A program made the position numbers and the translations under genes. This document shows positions 558 to 7,100 of a stretch of 64,000 nucleotides of DNA, piece after piece. Under the pieces are notes generated by a model that did no database searches, was not told the DNA's origin, and saw nothing but the letters and a program-made list of their open reading frames with translations. Position 1 is the stretch's first letter. Each line of letters starts with the position of its first letter. Source of the DNA: Anaerolineae bacterium (GTDB lineage: Bacteria; Chloroflexota; Anaerolineae; Aggregatilineales; Phototrophicaceae); NCBI GenBank assembly GCA_022820125.1, contig JAJEGA010000053.1, positions 1 to 64,000 on the forward strand. Reading direction: 5' to 3'.

Positions 558-1030
558 CTAGTCGGTCGATTCGGGGCGGAAGGGGAGTTCCGAGAGTTCT
601 TCGACAATATCGACCGTGCGCAAGCTGACGGTGATGACGCGTTCAATGAGCTTGAGGATGTACTGCTCGTCATCGCTGTAGCCGTTGGGATCGTGCGTGA
701 TGCCGCTGCGTTTGTCGGTTTTGACGCGGTATTGGTCGACGATCCAATCAAGGGCGCTGCGGTTGCCGAGGCGGTAGGCGAAGGCGCGCTCGGGGATGCC
801 GTGCAGGGTCAGGGTGTCGTTGTATTTGAGCGTGCTGTAGACCTTGTAATTGTCTTCGCTGGAATCGACTTTGCCTTTGGGCAGCATCTTTTCGACGCGG
901 TAGCTGACGGGTTTGCGGGTCGATTGCCAATCGAGTTCGCAGCGGTCGGCGGATTCGTAGTTGAGATGGAGCTCGGCGAGTTGCGCGCCGGCTTGGGAGA
1001 AGGCGTGGAAGCCGCCGGTTTGTCCATCGC

Positions 1031-1056
1031 GGGCGACCCGATGGGTAGCCCCTACG
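1031..1056. repeat. Palindromic GGGCGAC-type element inside a coding sequence
   Basis: GGGCGACCCGATGGGTAGCC followed by CCTAC: one member of the intergenic repeat family, here inside the restriction-modification reading frame. On the coding strand it translates as VGATHRVAR without a stop. Confidence 0.75.
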
Positions 1057-1906
1057 GCGTCGTTGGCGCGGGGAGGCGCGAAGGGAATGCGCGGCAGGTT
1101 GCGTTTGAGATCAAGGGCATAGCGTTCGCGGTAGCCGGGATGGTGCAGCAGCCCGTAGACATAATAGAAGATGTCCCACTTGCTGATAGCGGGGTCGCTG
1201 TAGTGGGCGCGGAATCGCGCGAGGGCGTAGTCGGTGATGTTCTCGCGGCGGTTACTGCCGTCGGCGTCGTAGGTGTAGAAGGGGAAACATTGTGTGTCGC
1301 CCGTTAGGTGAAAATCAGGCAAAATATACGACAATAGAATGTGAAAAGGTCTGTTTACACCAACCGAAGAGATACAAATTTCACGGTTTTCTGCTTCGGC
1401 GCGTTCGTCGGGGAAAAGCCGATGTTGCAAGAGCATTCGATCAATAAGCAAGTGATCTAAATAAAGCCATTTCTTCACAAATGGTCTCCAAAACGCAAAC
1501 CTGAGTTTAGCCGCATGAAAGTTCGTGTATCTAATTCTAGCCAAGTGCTGCTTTAATGTGGAACTCCATTTAATCAAGTCATAATTCACAAAGTTGTCAA
1601 CCTCTGGTTTCGGATTCTGCCGAGAATAACGGTCTACTTCGGCGTTGTAGTTTTCAACAAACTTGCGCATCCGTTTTGCCAGCGGGTCAAAGGCGAAGTC
1701 ATATACCCACTGGTCGCGGTTTGTTTTGACGCCGCCTGAAAAAGTCTTGAAAATTGTTTCGGGATTTGTGGCACTGGCGCGTTTGGCTGCTTTTGTGCCT
1801 ATTGGAAGGAAGCTGTCAAACTCGTCTTCGGTCTCGCTGCGCAGCCAAGTGTTTTTGCGGTTAGGGGCTAGACATTCCCAGGCGACTGTGATAGGCGCAG
1901 AATCAG

Positions 1907-1934
1907 CCTGCCGCCTGCCGCCTGCCGCCTGCCG
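1907..1934. repeat. Heptanucleotide tandem repeat CCTGCCG x4
   Basis: Four perfect CCTGCCG units lie in the restriction-modification coding sequence. With four units the frame breaks. Adding one unit (five) or removing two (two) joins the upstream frame to ADSAPITVAWECLAP without a stop. Contingency loci of bacterial restriction genes use this kind of repeat, but no length variation can be shown from one sequence. Confidence 0.75.
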
Positions 1935-2057
1935 CTAGAAGCGGAAGCGGGGAGTATTGAATTGTCCGATGCGGCTTGATTCGCTAAGAACTCCAGTTTC
2001 TCCGCTTTAGTCCATTCATCAGGAACGCGAAGGAAGAAGAGCTTGCCCCTAAGCTTA

Positions 2058-2366
2058 TCAGCGGACATAAGCGAATAGCGCGAACAAGACATCCACCACC
2101 ACTGGCGCAAATGTCAGGACAAGAACAACCATAACAGCAAGCGCCAACGCGAAATTCAGGTCATTGTTAATCCAATAGGTCTTATCGGTTTCTTTGCGCT
2201 TGCGCCGCCCAAAATGAAAGTTGAATATGCCGCGCGATCGGATCATCTCGGCTTTAGTCGCCATGTGCGGCTGGACGGCTTCCAGAGCGGCGACGCGTTC
2301 GCGTAACTGTTGGACAGTACGCTCCAGTTCGGCAATGCGAATTTGAGATTGGGAATCGTCGGGCAT
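2058..2366 (-). CDS. Small coiled-coil membrane protein (cassette gene 2)
   Basis: 102 residues of unknown function. Residues about 8-35 form a heptad-like coiled coil (RIAELERTVQQLRERVAALE), followed by PHMATKAEM, a basic stretch (GRRKRKETDK) and a strongly hydrophobic segment near residues 70-98, so it is probably anchored by its C-terminus. It shares the pattern EAxxPHxATxA(E/D) with the gene just upstream at 2379-2606, so the two look like diverged paralogues. Its stop overlaps the ATG that could restart translation of the restriction-modification remnant. It resembles the widespread uncharacterised small proteins with an ATKADL-type motif. Confidence 0.6.
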   Translation of the reverse strand: MPDDSQSQIRIAELERTVQQLRERVAALEAVQPHMATKAEMIRSRGIFNFHFGRRKRKETDKTYWINNDLNFALALAVMVVLVLTFAPVVVDVLFALFAYVR

Positions 2367-2378
2367 TGGCGGCTTCTC

Positions 2379-2606
2379 CTAGATGAGTTCGGCTAGACGG
2401 AGCGCCAGCATGATTAAGCCGCTCAAGCCCGCGAAAAGACCGATCTGCGTGGCGATGAACCACATTACAATCGTTTTGGTATGTCGTTCCAAATCCGCAT
2501 TGGTCGCAAAATGCGGCAAGGTCGCTTCAATCGTGGTGATTCGCTGAAGATTGGTATGCGGTGTAGGATTGGCTTCAATTTGCCCGATGTTTGCTTGCGT
2601 TGCCAT
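2379..2606 (-). CDS. Small membrane protein (cassette gene 1)
   Basis: 75 residues, function unknown. A polar N-terminal half with IEATLPHFATNADLERH is followed by a hydrophobic segment near residues 46-70 that likely spans the membrane. The ATG follows GAGGAGACAGC, a good Shine-Dalgarno sequence. It is 12 bp upstream of cassette gene 2 and shares its EAxxPHxATxA(E/D) motif. A promoter at 2638-2665 precedes it, so the pair can be expressed independently of the host gene. Confidence 0.6.
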   Translation of the reverse strand: MATQANIGQIEANPTPHTNLQRITTIEATLPHFATNADLERHTKTIVMWFIATQIGLFAGLSGLIMLALRLAELI

Positions 2607-2637
2607 GCTGTCTCCTCAATCGCTTCCCTTTGGTCGA

Positions 2638-2665
2638 ATTATATCGCAAACTCAGAGCAAATCAA
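2638..2665 (-). promoter_or_regulatory. Putative sigma-70 promoter of the cassette
   Basis: On the reverse strand TTGATT (2665-2660) is separated by 16 bp from a perfect TATAAT (2643-2638), with the first cassette ATG about 30 bp downstream. The -35 box overlaps the last codons of the interrupted upstream gene. Confidence 0.5.
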
Positions 2666-4422
2666 TCGGCTTGGCTCTGCCGGTTGCGTATCGCCAGCGT
2701 CACGCCGACGCCGACGCGAATATCGAAGACATTGCCAATTGACCGCCCCGGTCGATTCTTTCGGATATTCCCGCCCAAGTCCAAGTGATAGACCTTGTCA
2801 AAGTCTTGCAAGAGATGCTTGCGGAAACCATCAAAGGCATAGGCGTCGACGAAGCTGTTGTTGCTGACGTAGCAGACGATGCCCGGGCGCTCGCCCAGCC
2901 GATCGGTCGCCCAGCGCCAAAAGCGCACGTAGGCATCGTATAGCTGGTTCTTCAATGTCGCTTTTGAATCTTTAGCGTAGGTCTCGCGGATGCGCTGGTC
3001 GATGACGTCGTATTTGCGATTCTTATTGTTGTCGTTCTCGTTGACCTGGCCCACGTTGTAAGGCGGGTTGCCGATGATGACGTTGATGTCGGCGGCTTTC
3101 TGGCGTTCGACGCGGGCGGTGTTGGCTTCGGTGAGGAAGGTCATCTGGCGCTCGCGGGCGAGATCGAGGGTGTCGACGAAGCAGAGCCCCTCAAAGGGCG
3201 CGGCGCGTCCGGTGAGCTCGTAATATTCGCGCTCGATATTCAGCGAGGCGATATAGTAGGGCATGAGCATGACTTCGTTGGCGAAGAGGCGCTGGCGGTA
3301 AAAGTCCTCAAAATTGCGCAGATTCCGTTCATAAGCGCGGCGCAGCAGATTGACGACGAAGTTGCCGGTGCCGGTGGCCGGATCAATGATGACGACGCCT
3401 TCATCGCCGAGCTTCTTTCCGAACTCGGTTTCGAGGACTTCTTCAACGGCGGCGCACATGAAGTCGACGATCTCCTGCGGCGTGTAGACGATGCCGTGCG
3501 TGTCGGCGACTTTGACGCTGTAACCCTGAAAGAAGCGCTCGTAGACGGAATTGATGAAGGTCTGCTTGTCGCTGAAATCAAGGTCTTCGGCGGCGGCTTC
3601 GATGGCTTTGTGGAATTGATTTAGCGAACCGAGAAAGTCAGCGCGGTTGAAGTAGCGGCTGGTCAACGCGCGGATGACTTCTTCGATTTTGGCGGCGATG
3701 ACGTTGGTCTGGGCAAACTGGTCGGCATCAAAGACGCGGCGGATGATGCGCTCGGTCATCAGGTGCTGGATGAGCATTTCGTCGACGGCTTCGATGCTGA
3801 TGTTGGGATTGAGCGAGCGGCGGCAAAGCGCCATGAATTCATCGAACTGGCGCTGGAAGTCGGGGTTGTCGCTGTGAGCGGCGTCGATCTTGGCTTTGAG
3901 CTGCCCGGCGATGTCGCGGATCTGCTCGCCGTAAGATTGCACCGCTTCGTTGAAATTCTGGCGGGCGCGTTCCTTGTAGCTGAAGTATTGGCTCAGCAGC
4001 GCGGCGAAGTTTTTCTTCTCGCGGATGGCTGTGCGGCGGGCTTCGTAGCCGTCCTGGTAGAGAACGGCGGTGACGGTGTCCTCGAAGATGATGTTATCGA
4101 GGGGATAGCCTACCGCTTTCTTGTTTTCGATTTCGGCGAAGAGATTGTCGCTGCTGTCTTTGGCTTCCCAGAAGGCGAAGGGTCGCTTCCACTCGTCGAC
4201 CAGCGCGCCATCGGGACGGATATGGCGCCTGCCCTGTCCTTGCGTGGCGTATTCGTCTATGAGGGTCAGCTTGCGGCGGCGGCCGAGGCCGGTCAAGAGC
4301 GTGCCGAAGGCGCGGCGCAAATTGCCTTCGGTCGGCTTGGCTTGGGCGGCGCGCAATTCCTTGATGGCGCTGTAGTATTTGGTCAGGTGCCGGTCGTTCG
4401 GCTGGATGGTGATGGGCGGCAT
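2662..4422 (-). pseudogene. N-terminal nuclease-methyltransferase part of a type ISP/IIG restriction-modification enzyme
   Basis: 586 residues. Residues roughly 1-150 carry a PD-(D/E)xK-like nuclease pattern (RPDGAL, then FWEAKDSSDN). A gamma-class N6-adenine methyltransferase follows, with motif I DPATGTGNFVV and motif IV NPPYNVG. The reading frame stops at 2662 after RNRQSQAD, where a 608-bp cassette intervenes; the target-recognition part continues at 2068. Start chosen at ATG 4422 (MPPITIQPND): the longer frame to 4500 only translates a palindromic repeat. Family enzymes cut and methylate as one chain, so this half alone would lack most of its recognition domain. It may be inactive, or may work if the halves are translated separately. 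Confidence 0.75.
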
Positions 4423-4576: not shown

Positions 4577-4657
4577 TAACTATCGGTTCAGCTTGCCTGC
4601 GACGCGGCGCAGAATCCTGATCATTTCACGCGGCAGCCCTGTGGGAATGGAAGGCTT

Positions 4658-5257
4658 ATGGCAACAGCAGAACGCACTAATCCAACGGCGATGAGCGCGC
4701 CTGTGACGCGGGCGGCGGCGAGACCCAGCGTCCAGGTGGCGGCGCCCAGCCGGCGCGAATTCCTCTATTATATTTGGGGCGCGTCTATTGCTCTGCTGCT
4801 GGGCCAGACTTCCGCCGGGTTGATCTGGTTTGCTTTTCCGCGCTTCAAAGAGGGCGAATTCGGCGGCACCTTCGCCTTCAATCCGGAGGAGCTGCCGGGG
4901 GTGGGCGCGGCGCCGGTGACGGTGGCGTCCGGGCGCTTCCACATCTCGCACACGCCCGAAGGCATGCGGGCGCTGTATCAGGTTTGCACGCACCTGGGTT
5001 GTTTGCCGAAATGGGTGCCGACCAATTTCCGCTTTGAATGCCCCTGCCACGGCTCGAAGTTTGAGTTGAGCGGTGTGTGGATTGAAGGACCGGCGCCGCG
5101 GCATCTGGACAAATTCGTGGCGACTGTGACTTATGCCGATGGAACGACGGTGGAGACGCCGACCGATGGCGGGGCGATTCCGCTGGACCCCGAACGGCAG
5201 ATTACGAGCATACAAATCGACACGGGCGCGCGCATCATCGGCGAGCTGCACCCTTAG
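4658..5257 (+). CDS. qcrA: Rieske iron-sulfur protein of a bc-type complex
   Basis: 199 residues; carries the [2Fe-2S] cluster that takes electrons from quinol at the Qo site and passes them to a c-type cytochrome. Residues 35-60 form one transmembrane anchor. Cluster box 1 is C110-T-H112-L-G-C115 and box 2 is C128-P-C130-H131-G-S, giving all four ligands and the disulfide cysteines. The N-terminal 30 residues are low-complexity and cytosolic. It is the first gene of a four-gene run with cytochrome b 28 bp downstream and two c-type cytochromes, so it belongs to complex III or an alternative b6c-type complex. Identity of the family is certain; the choice between qcrA and petC naming is convention. 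Confidence 0.93.
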   Translation: MATAERTNPTAMSAPVTRAAARPSVQVAAPSRREFLYYIWGASIALLLGQTSAGLIWFAFPRFKEGEFGGTFAFNPEELPGVGAAPVTVASGRFHISHTPEGMRALYQVCTHLGCLPKWVPTNFRFECPCHGSKFELSGVWIEGPAPRHLDKFVATVTYADGTTVETPTDGGAIPLDPERQITSIQIDTGARIIGELHP

Positions 5258-5285: not shown

Positions 5286-7100
5286 ATGACCATCCTCCCC
5301 TTCCCGTCCTTCCTCGATGACGTCAAGGAAAAAGGCTTCAAGAAAGCGGTCTTTGAAGGCATTGATGATTCGGTCGAGCGCTTGACCGCGGGCTTGAACG
5401 TACAGGACTTGCGCGAGGCATTCCGCGGCGAAACGGCGAGCCGGCGGCCGAACCCCCGTTTGACGCCGCATGCCGATGGCTTTTGGCTGCACATGCGCCC
5501 GTCTTATTTCAATCGCGATGTGACCGGCATGTACCCGACCTTTCGGCTGGGCTGGCTGTCTTCCTACTTTGTATTCTTCGAGACGATCACCGGCATTCTA
5601 TTGATGCTCTGGTATACGCCGTCGCCGGAGATCGCTTACGGCGATATGCTGACGATTTTGAGCAATGTGCCGCTGGGTCAGTTGATGCGCGATATGCACC
5701 GCCTGGGCGCCGAGTTCATGGTGGCGGTGGTGGCGATGCACATGATGCGAACCTGGATTACCGGTTCGTACAAGAAGCCGCGCCAGTTCACCTGGTTCAC
5801 CGGTTTGTTATTGTTAGTGATTACGGGATTTTTGAGTTTCTCCGGTTATTTGCTGCCCTGGGATCAGTTGTCGCTTTGGGCGGTGACGATCGGCGCGTCA
5901 ATGGCGGAAGCGACGCCGGTGGTTGGCGAGCAGGTCAACTTACTGCTGCGCGGCGCTCCGGAGCTGGGGGCGAATGGACTGCTGCGCTTTTATCTGCTGC
6001 ATGTCTTGGCGCTGCCCGCCTTGCTCTTCGTTTTCTTCGGCGTGCATTATTACAAGGTGGTGATCCACGGGCACAGTCTGCCGCCGCAGAAGGAGAATAT
6101 CGGCGAGGACACCGCCAAGCGCGTCCCGCTGGACAAGCGCGTTTATTTCATCCCCGACATGTTGACTTACGAGATGATGTGGCTGGGCGCGACGACCTTC
6201 ATCATAACTGTGCTTTGCATCTGGTTCTATCACGCGCCGCTGGAGAACCACGCTGATCCGCAGGTGACGCCGCTGGGCACGACGGCGCCTTGGTATTTCT
6301 TGTGGATTCAGGGGGCGCTGAAGCTGGGCGACAAGTTCTTCTGGGGCGTGGCTTTCCCGACGATCGCGCTGGGCGGTCTGGCGCTGCTGCCTTATCTTGA
6401 TGTGACGCCGAGCCGGCGTTACGCGCATCGCCGCTTTATGCTGACCATCGCCAGCCTGCTGATTTCAGTGACGACCATATTGAGTTATATGGGCTTGGCG
6501 AAATTCGCCGTTCAGACATCAGCCGAAACCGAGATCGTACACGAATTGACATTTGAGCCGGCGCACAGCAAGGTCGGCATTGGGCGAACGATCCCCTTCG
6601 ATCAGATGATTGTGGGGGCCTACAGCACGGCGCAGCTGCATTATGCGGACGATATGGCGGCGAGCGATGCGCTGGCGGCGATCAATGCCGAAGTCAGCGC
6701 GAATGGTCAATTCGATCAGATGATTCAAGAGCTTAAAGATCAACATGTTGGCGCGAATCAACTGCCGCTGCGCTTCCGCGCGATTCCCGCGGCTGAGGCG
6801 CCGACGCTGATGCGGGTGATGGAAGAGTTCGCTCATCACTTGGAGGCGGAGCCAAAAGAACTGCCAAACGTATGGGGCGCGCTTGTCATCACTGACAATC
6901 AAGGGAGCCTAAAGCGGCTCGATTGGATCGTCAGCTGGGACAGCGTTTTGATCGAAGGCGGCGAGGTCCAAACTGACGAAGCCGGCGATCCGATTCTGGT
7001 GTATTCCGATCAAGTGGATGCCGCGGGCAATCCGATTCCCGTCCGGCGCATTTTCAGCGATCATCTGTTCATTCACGAAGCGTCAGCGTATTTCGATTAG
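5286..7100 (+). CDS. qcrB: Cytochrome b/b6-type subunit with long C-terminal soluble extension
   Basis: 604 residues; the membrane core of a quinol:cytochrome c oxidoreductase. Heme ligands are H138/H152 in helix B (13 residues between) and H239/H254 in helix D (14 between), the b6-type spacing. PWDQ lies at 191-194. The whole cytochrome b, including the subunit IV-like part, is in one chain, with transmembrane segments to about residue 408. The Qo motif, usually PEWY, reads A-P-W-Y at 334-337, so the conserved glutamate is absent. About 196 residues follow the last helix (from FAVQTSAETEIV), hydrophilic and without a heme motif; I do not recognise this domain. A GAGG ribosome site precedes the ATG. 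Confidence 0.92.
   Translation: MTILPFPSFLDDVKEKGFKKAVFEGIDDSVERLTAGLNVQDLREAFRGETASRRPNPRLTPHADGFWLHMRPSYFNRDVTGMYPTFRLGWLSSYFVFFETITGILLMLWYTPSPEIAYGDMLTILSNVPLGQLMRDMHRLGAEFMVAVVAMHMMRTWITGSYKKPRQFTWFTGLLLLVITGFLSFSGYLLPWDQLSLWAVTIGASMAEATPVVGEQVNLLLRGAPELGANGLLRFYLLHVLALPALLFVFFGVHYYKVVIHGHSLPPQKENIGEDTAKRVPLDKRVYFIPDMLTYEMMWLGATTFIITVLCIWFYHAPLENHADPQVTPLGTTAPWYFLWIQGALKLGDKFFWGVAFPTIALGGLALLPYLDVTPSRRYAHRRFMLTIASLLISVTTILSYMGLAKFAVQTSAETEIVHELTFEPAHSKVGIGRTIPFDQMIVGAYSTAQLHYADDMAASDALAAINAEVSANGQFDQMIQELKDQHVGANQLPLRFRAIPAAEAPTLMRVMEEFAHHLEAEPKELPNVWGALVITDNQGSLKRLDWIVSWDSVLIEGGEVQTDEAGDPILVYSDQVDAAGNPIPVRRIFSDHLFIHEASAYFD

What the first reader, a model, noticed from the sequence alone, without database searches (positions are those of the whole stretch)
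558..4422. Type ISP restriction-modification gene interrupted by a precise 608-bp cassette
Seen: the upstream half stops after RNRQSQAD and the downstream half resumes with ADKLRGKLFF. Deleting exactly 608 bp between the repeated GAT codons joins both in frame with no residue lost. The cassette has its own promoter and two paralogous small coiled-coil membrane genes. Inference: it is a cassette inserted, and possibly excisable, in a defence gene, so its loss would restore (with the heptamer change) a full enzyme. Small membrane proteins nested in restriction genes could be immunity or anti-phage partners.
Basis: partly seen in the sequence, partly recalled or inferred. Interest (0 to 1): 0.7.

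Follow-up and report, generated by a model that had tools for sequence, protein, structure and literature searches.

The report
Split restriction enzyme with nested genes
A bacterial DNA-defence enzyme that is normally one protein is here encoded as two separate genes with small membrane-protein genes between them, and its target-reading half carries a repeat that probably switches it on and off; the same split recurs in many related bacteria and, with different genes in the gap, in distant ones.

Summary
In detail: window 4422-558 (minus) is one restriction-modification gene in two halves, with two small coiled-coil/membrane genes (S1, S2) between. It is not an accident in one genome. In the same sponge-associated Chloroflexota genus, ten orthologues end their nuclease-methyltransferase half at the same linker, 5-9 codons past the methyltransferase; five are fused. 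The split-off specificity halves mostly stay open with their own starts, under the same constraint as fused ones (omega 0.23 vs 0.24). Best reading: a working two-subunit enzyme, not a defence gene knocked out by an excisable cassette. The enzyme is Type IIL/IIG, not Type ISP (no helicase). In six loci the -35 box TTGA of the small-gene promoter supplies the upstream half's TGA stop. The specificity half of three species, the window included, carries a heptamer array found nowhere else in 46 genomes, with different copy numbers and frames: likely phase variation, off in this assembly. S genes are multicopy, genus-restricted as far as tested, and enriched beside DNA-methylase/defence genes (29/46 vs 2/37 controls). 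In Pseudanabaena and another Chloroflexota, toxin-antitoxin-type genes fill the same gap. Excision is not supported. What S1/S2 do is inference.

The parts
2662..4422 (-). N-half (RM subunit): PD..EAK nuclease-like region, ISP-type coupler, N6-adenine methyltransferase; stops 7 codons after VGVGVTLAIR
   Evidence: PF22240 1.4e-15, PF02384 2.6e-10; 7lo5 residues 8-577, E 8e-121; dN/dS 0.08-0.24 against orthologues
2638..2665 (-). Promoter TTGATT-16-TATAAT; its -35 box contains the TGA stop of the N-half
   Evidence: same overlap in L032, L033, L034, L041, L044
2379..2606 (-). S1, 75-aa coiled-coil/membrane protein
   Evidence: Multicopy family in genus; dN/dS mostly 0.05-0.3; helix 36-74 hydrophobic at the C-terminus; no Pfam, NCBIfam or PADLOC match
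2058..2366 (-). S2, 102-aa coiled-coil protein with C-terminal membrane segment 73-91
   Evidence: Orthologue in L034, dN/dS 0.20; KD19 2.85; two helices
1868..2068 (-). Start of the C-half (specificity gene), ATG at 2068 overlapping the S2 stop by 11 nt; frame ends at 1868 because of the heptamer frame change
1906..1935 (-). Heptamer array (GGCAGGC), 4.3 units, between the two frames of the C-half
   Evidence: also in L039 (5.0 units, frame open) and L037 (7.1 units, out of frame)
558..1934 (-). Rest of the C-half: specificity (target recognition) domain, open 458 aa in the other frame
   Evidence: PF18135 8.5e-81; LlaGI, LlaBIII, 7lo5 specificity domains; dN/dS about 0.25

Best explanation
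This is a Type IIL/IIG restriction-modification enzyme (nuclease, methyltransferase and specificity domain in one chain in most relatives) that exists here as two genes: an RM subunit and a separate specificity subunit. The breakpoint is the short linker between the methyltransferase and the specificity domain, where a separate chain can plausibly re-associate, as in two-chain systems such as BcgI (inferred). The linker holds a promoter-bearing module of small coiled-coil membrane genes whose -35 box ends the RM gene (shown by sequence). From that promoter S1, S2 and the specificity gene are probably transcribed together, the last one restarted by overlap with the S2 stop (inferred). A heptamer array in the specificity gene probably switches specificity on and off while the RM subunit and small genes stay on (inferred from three species). 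Modules and specificity genes change by recombination behind the methyltransferase end (supported by sequence). S1/S2 are most likely membrane-anchored accessory, or addiction/abortive, partners of restriction systems (weakest step).
For: Same breakpoint in ten orthologues of the genus and in Pseudanabaena and a Lake Pavin Chloroflexota MAG. Seven split C-halves open for about 440-500 aa, nearly all with an own start 2-13 codons before the domain. C-half dN/dS the same for split and fused loci, 0.23 and 0.24. N-half and S1+C-half open on different contigs in G014. -35 box overlapping the stop in six loci. Heptamer only in this gene, three species, three copy numbers, one frame open. Recombination at the methyltransferase end. 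S family enriched beside R-M/defence genes, 29/46 vs 2/37. Toxin-antitoxin-type genes in the same gap elsewhere.
Against: No expression, methylation or protein data. Two of the three heptamer loci, the window included, are out of frame, so the enzyme is predicted off in this assembly. C-half divergence may largely predate the split, so dN/dS alone does not prove function after it. L036/L052 could reflect an incomplete bin. S genes also lie beside ordinary genes in 17 of 54 loci, and two fused loci have no S genes.
Confidence: 0.62

Rival explanations
1. Disrupted enzyme: small-gene modules inserted into the gene and inactivated it; the C-half is a remnant on its way to decay.
For: The window and L037 C-halves are out of frame; G014 lacks a C-half next to its N-half; L054 keeps only a short C-half fragment in this slot.
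Against: Seven split C-halves are open over their length with own starts; constraint equals that of fused genes; the only lesion in the window and L037 C-halves is at a heptamer array shared by three species; N-halves keep dN/dS 0.08-0.24.
Confidence: 0.17
2. Excisable cassette: the 608-bp unit moves by a site-specific mechanism and its loss restores one enzyme.
For: Fused relatives exist (L035, L038, L040, L043); the S unit with its own promoter occurs at many places; stop at +21 nt in seven loci.
Against: No recombinase in the unit, no shared terminal or direct repeat, no empty site with the same flanks; the flanking methyltransferase end changes together with the state; the joined linker would be 12 residues instead of 8; gaps differ in content and length, 343-1586 bp.
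Confidence: 0.06
3. The enzyme is split and functional, but S1/S2 are neutral passengers: a proliferating small-gene family that lands in defence islands and other permissive places, with no role in restriction.
For: S genes also lie beside non-R-M genes (17 of 54 loci), sit downstream of the fused gene in L040 and L055, and are absent at the fused loci L035 and L038; nested genes differ between loci.
Against: Strong enrichment beside several unrelated R-M/defence gene types; purifying selection on S1 and S2; toxin-antitoxin-type genes at the same position in distant groups.
Confidence: 0.35

Closest known systems
Type IIL/IIG single-chain enzymes (PDB 7lo5/7lvv, which I recall as DrdV; TaqII/TaqIII, PMC5587805)
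   Same: Same domains in the same order; the fused congener L035 aligns over its full length with 7lo5
   Different: Here two genes, with small genes and a promoter between them, and a heptamer array in the specificity gene
Type ISP (LlaGI, LlaBIII; PMC4872093, PMC4666363)
   Same: Coupler, methyltransferase and specificity domain are homologous
   Different: No SF2 helicase-like ATPase; not one chain
Two-chain Type IIB enzymes BcgI and BsaXI (PMC4027205, PMC11997821)
   Same: Nuclease-methyltransferase subunit plus separate specificity subunit
   Different: Their S subunit has two recognition domains; here one ISP-type domain, derived by splitting a Type IIL gene; genes lie between the halves
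Pneumococcal tvr Type I locus (PMC6265443)
   Same: Toxin-antitoxin genes between methyltransferase and restriction genes of a phase-variable R-M locus
   Different: tvr shuffles hsdS by a recombinase; here the genes interrupt what is one reading frame in relatives, with no recombinase
Phase-variable Type IIG enzymes (Campylobacter jejuni, PMC4889913)
   Same: Phase variation of a Type IIG enzyme that alters methylation patterns
   Different: Here a heptamer array in the separate specificity gene, so only specificity would switch
Fused and separate M/S subunits of Type I systems (EcoKI, PMC3510504; PMC6158711)
   Same: Joining M and S leaves activity, so one- and two-chain forms are interchangeable in principle
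   Different: Engineered fusions there; natural, repeated change between states here

Membership tests
Type ISP restriction-modification | SF2 helicase-like ATPase between nuclease and coupler | tested here: not met
   No helicase family match in the N-half; collinear with helicase-less 7lo5; fused L035 likewise
Type ISP restriction-modification | ISP coupler and ISP C-terminal specificity domain | tested here: met
   PF22240 1.4e-15, PF18135 8.5e-81
Type IIL/IIG enzyme | Nuclease, helical/coupler, N6 methyltransferase and specificity domains without a motor | tested here: met
   the nuclease by the RPDG...FWEAKD motif and alignment to 7lo5 only
Type IIL/IIG enzyme | All functions in a single polypeptide | tested here: not met
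   Stop after the methyltransferase in the window and nine congeners; met in L035, L038, L040
Type IIL/IIG enzyme | Cuts at a fixed distance from its site and protects by methylating one strand | not testable with these tools
   Needs biochemistry or methylation data
Type IIB (BcgI-like) | Separate S subunit with two recognition domains | tested here: not met
   One Type_ISP_C domain in the C-half; two-domain S subunit described in PMC11997821
Toxin-antitoxin module (S1/S2) | Match to a known toxin or antitoxin family | tested here: not met
   No Pfam, NCBIfam or PADLOC family at its cut-off for S1 or S2
Toxin-antitoxin module (S1/S2) | One product toxic, the other relieving it | not testable with these tools
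   Needs expression tests
Site-specific mobile cassette | Recombinase, terminal repeats or target duplication, empty site with the same flanks | tested here: not met
   only partial copies of the methyltransferase end in L032 and L034, of different length (26 and 62 nt)
Phase-variable gene (simple sequence repeat) | In-gene repeat with varying copy number that changes the reading frame | tested here: met
   4.3, 5.0 and 7.1 units in three species; frame closed, open, closed
Phase-variable gene (simple sequence repeat) | Copy-number variation within one population | not testable with these tools
   No reads available here

The most novel reading that the evidence does not exclude
The methyltransferase/specificity linker of Type IIL enzymes is a recurrent slot where a single-chain restriction enzyme is converted into a two-subunit one with embedded, promoter-driven small-gene modules (membrane coiled-coil proteins in sponge-associated Chloroflexota, toxin-antitoxin-type pairs in cyanobacteria and other Chloroflexota). 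These couple expression of the specificity subunit to an addiction or abortive-infection module, and in some species specificity alone is under phase-variable control.
Probability: 0.3. Interest if true: 0.78.

Novelty: new variant of a known kind. Interest (0 to 1): 0.6.

Why it matters
It shows natural, repeated change between one-chain and two-chain forms of a restriction enzyme at a defined linker, among close relatives, with intact halves in both states and even in separate places in one genome (G014). That makes an old idea about restriction-enzyme evolution directly testable. It also points to a small membrane-protein family that travels with restriction and defence genes, and to phase variation that would act on specificity alone in an uncultured, sponge-associated lineage.

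Tried and rejected
Assembly error: rejected, the same breakpoint appears in ten assemblies of the genus and outside it. Clean excision at the GAT repeat: rejected. A structured RNA in the gap: no Rfam match in the gaps of the eight loci searched (the one hit is a distant tRNA). Phage-borne S genes: no match in 50,697 phage records; one distant relative (43%) on a viral contig, L220. S as a known toxin-antitoxin family: no match. Short C-half frames elsewhere in the phylum (G306, G160, G184): not splits at this linker but truncated or differently broken genes, or a contig end. The antisense gene pair in L032, L034 and L042 has no significant family match. Structure models of S1 and S2 from single sequences have moderate confidence (mean pLDDT 74-75) and were used only for secondary structure, so no fold search was made.

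Full report
WHAT IS THERE. On the minus strand of the window, 4422-2662 encodes 586 aa with an ISP-type coupler (PF22240) and an N6-adenine methyltransferase, preceded by a nuclease-like region with the motif RPDG...FWEAKD. It aligns collinearly with residues 8-577 of PDB 7lo5 (E 8e-121). Seven codons past VGVGVTLAIR it stops. S1 (2606-2379) and S2 (2366-2058) follow; an ATG at 2068, overlapping the S2 stop by 11 nt, opens the specificity half, whose frame changes at a heptamer array (1935-1906) and continues as a Type_ISP_C domain to 558.

WHAT KIND OF ENZYME. The fused congener L035 aligns over its full length with 7lo5 (1029 aa, E 1e-195), whereas LlaGI and LlaBIII match only from the coupler on. 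There is no helicase. [quoted passage not shown] PADLOC also calls it IIG. That 7lo5 is DrdV is from memory.

THE SPLIT IS A RECURRENT STATE. Among 33 congeners searched, 13 carry an N-half at 70-89% identity, and G023 has a second, more diverged copy at 66%. With the window, ten N-halves end 5-9 codons after the same motif and five run on into the specificity domain: L035, L038, L040, L043 (to its contig end) and L047 (later frameshift). Nearly all lie in one genomic slot, between a divergent Rieske gene and, where the contig extends that far, a CorA-like gene. The 80 best relatives from GTDB genomes are mostly fused, commonly at about 1000-1060 aa. Outside the genus the same linker is split in two Pseudanabaena genomes and a Chloroflexota MAG (LacPavin), and probably in a Cyanothece MAG whose contig ends there. 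Source names of the MAGs suggest sponge and other marine samples; the sponge origin is my reading of isolate names, not a record field.

THE HALVES ARE MAINTAINED. Seven split specificity halves (L032, L033, L034, L039, L042, L044, L052) are open for about 440-500 aa; nearly all have a start codon 2-13 codons before the conserved motif. Their dN/dS among split loci (median 0.23) equals that among fused ones (0.24). In G014 the N-half and an S1+C-half unit lie on different contigs, both open. That the halves are expressed and assemble as two chains is inference.

THE JUNCTION. In the window, L032, L033, L034, L041 and L044 the best promoter match in the 75 nt after the methyltransferase end has its -35 box starting one base before the TGA stop (TTGATT, TTGACT or TTGACA) with a -10 box at the right spacing (shuffle p 0.004-0.08 each). 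L039 keeps the stop position but not the full promoter; L036, L037 and L042, which have no S gene directly there, have TAG stops and no promoter. S genes at other loci often have a similar promoter about 60 nt before their start. So the unit looks like promoter plus small gene, and its -35 box ends the upstream gene.

HOW THE STATES CHANGE. On the N-half tree the split/fused label changes four times, at least three forced by well-supported branches. L042 (split) and L043 (fused) are sisters, mostly 90-97% identical along the N-half, but fall to 75-86% in the last ~100 codons: the methyltransferase end is exchanged together with the state. L032 and L034 keep second partial copies of the methyltransferase end (26 and 62 nt) behind the S genes, followed by an antisense gene pair and the C-half, as in L042. 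This fits recombination of modules, not precise excision.

THE HEPTAMER. (GGCAGGC)n of this length occurs in 3 of 46 genomes and only in this gene: window 4.3 units, L039 5.0, L037 7.1. The window and L037 are out of frame, L039 in frame. Phase variation is the best reading; variation within a population could not be tested.

THE SMALL GENES. S1 has no family match and S2 only sub-threshold hits. Both are helical with a C-terminal hydrophobic segment. The family is multicopy in the genus (24 of 25 genomes) and was not found in 16 genomes of other genera of the order. Of 54 other S loci, 37 have an R-M or defence gene in the fetched region, 33 within 1.5 kb, against 2 of 37 control stretches. 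Without the eight loci that supplied reference proteins it is 29 of 46, Fisher p 2e-8; many loci are orthologous, so this p overstates independence. Neighbours include several DNA-methylase types, a Type IIG enzyme, Mrr and an AAA_15 ATPase. Two fused loci have S genes downstream of the enzyme instead (L040, L055). In Pseudanabaena the gap holds a DUF433 protein and a ParE-family toxin, in LacPavin a DUF4258 protein and an MqsA-like antitoxin. By position, S1/S2 are most likely accessory, addiction or abortive partners; this is inference, and neutral passengers remain possible.

COMPARISON. It works like a two-chain RM+S enzyme (BcgI, BsaXI: PMC4027205, PMC11997821) but is not a member of that family, as it has one recognition domain. 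Fusing M and S of Type I enzymes leaves activity (PMC3510504, PMC6158711), so one- and two-chain forms are plausible alternatives. Toxin-antitoxin genes inside a restriction locus are known from pneumococcal tvr (PMC6265443), and phase-variable Type IIG enzymes from Campylobacter (PMC4889913). I found no paper on a Type IIL gene split at this linker with nested genes, in a library that lacks most subscription journals.

VERDICT. Observation confirmed; first interpretation partly supported. A new variant of a known kind, with an unexplained small-gene family as its most interesting part.

Noticed in passing
L084 5001-9113 and L081 5001-8717 (Anaerolineae MAGs): A DUF559 endonuclease-like domain (PF04480, E about 1e-37) flanked by repeat-derived peptides is inserted in frame into the specificity domain of related Type IIL enzymes, at two different positions.
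   Followed up: partly
L089 189-4403 (Hydrogenedentota MAG): A Y1 (IS200-like) transposase domain with repeat peptides lies in frame inside the specificity region of a Type IIL enzyme, in one open frame of 1404 aa.
   Followed up: partly
L032 5627-6272; L034 oriented 5463-6117; L042 oriented 4602-5253: An antisense gene pair (80-aa coiled coil and 140-aa protein, no significant family match) fills the same gap between the enzyme halves.
   Followed up: partly
L053 1407-3266: In G020 an AAA_15/AAA_21 ATPase gene overlapping an S gene occupies the slot beside the Rieske gene that holds the restriction enzyme in congeners.
   Followed up: partly
L220 3001-3180: A distant S-family relative (43%) lies on a 19-kb contig of the viral collection, close to small Cro/XRE-like repressor genes.
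   Followed up: no
G035 (L049-L051 and other contigs): A same-family genome has 18 matches to the N-half on many contigs, several cut by contig ends: an unusual expansion of Type IIL enzymes or fragments.
   Followed up: no
L042, L034 and L052 (C-halves and their 3' flanks): Palindromic repeat-derived peptides (such as TPNPSPTSREGL..SLILGEGAGGWGQ) are inserted in frame in specificity halves of this genus.
   Followed up: no
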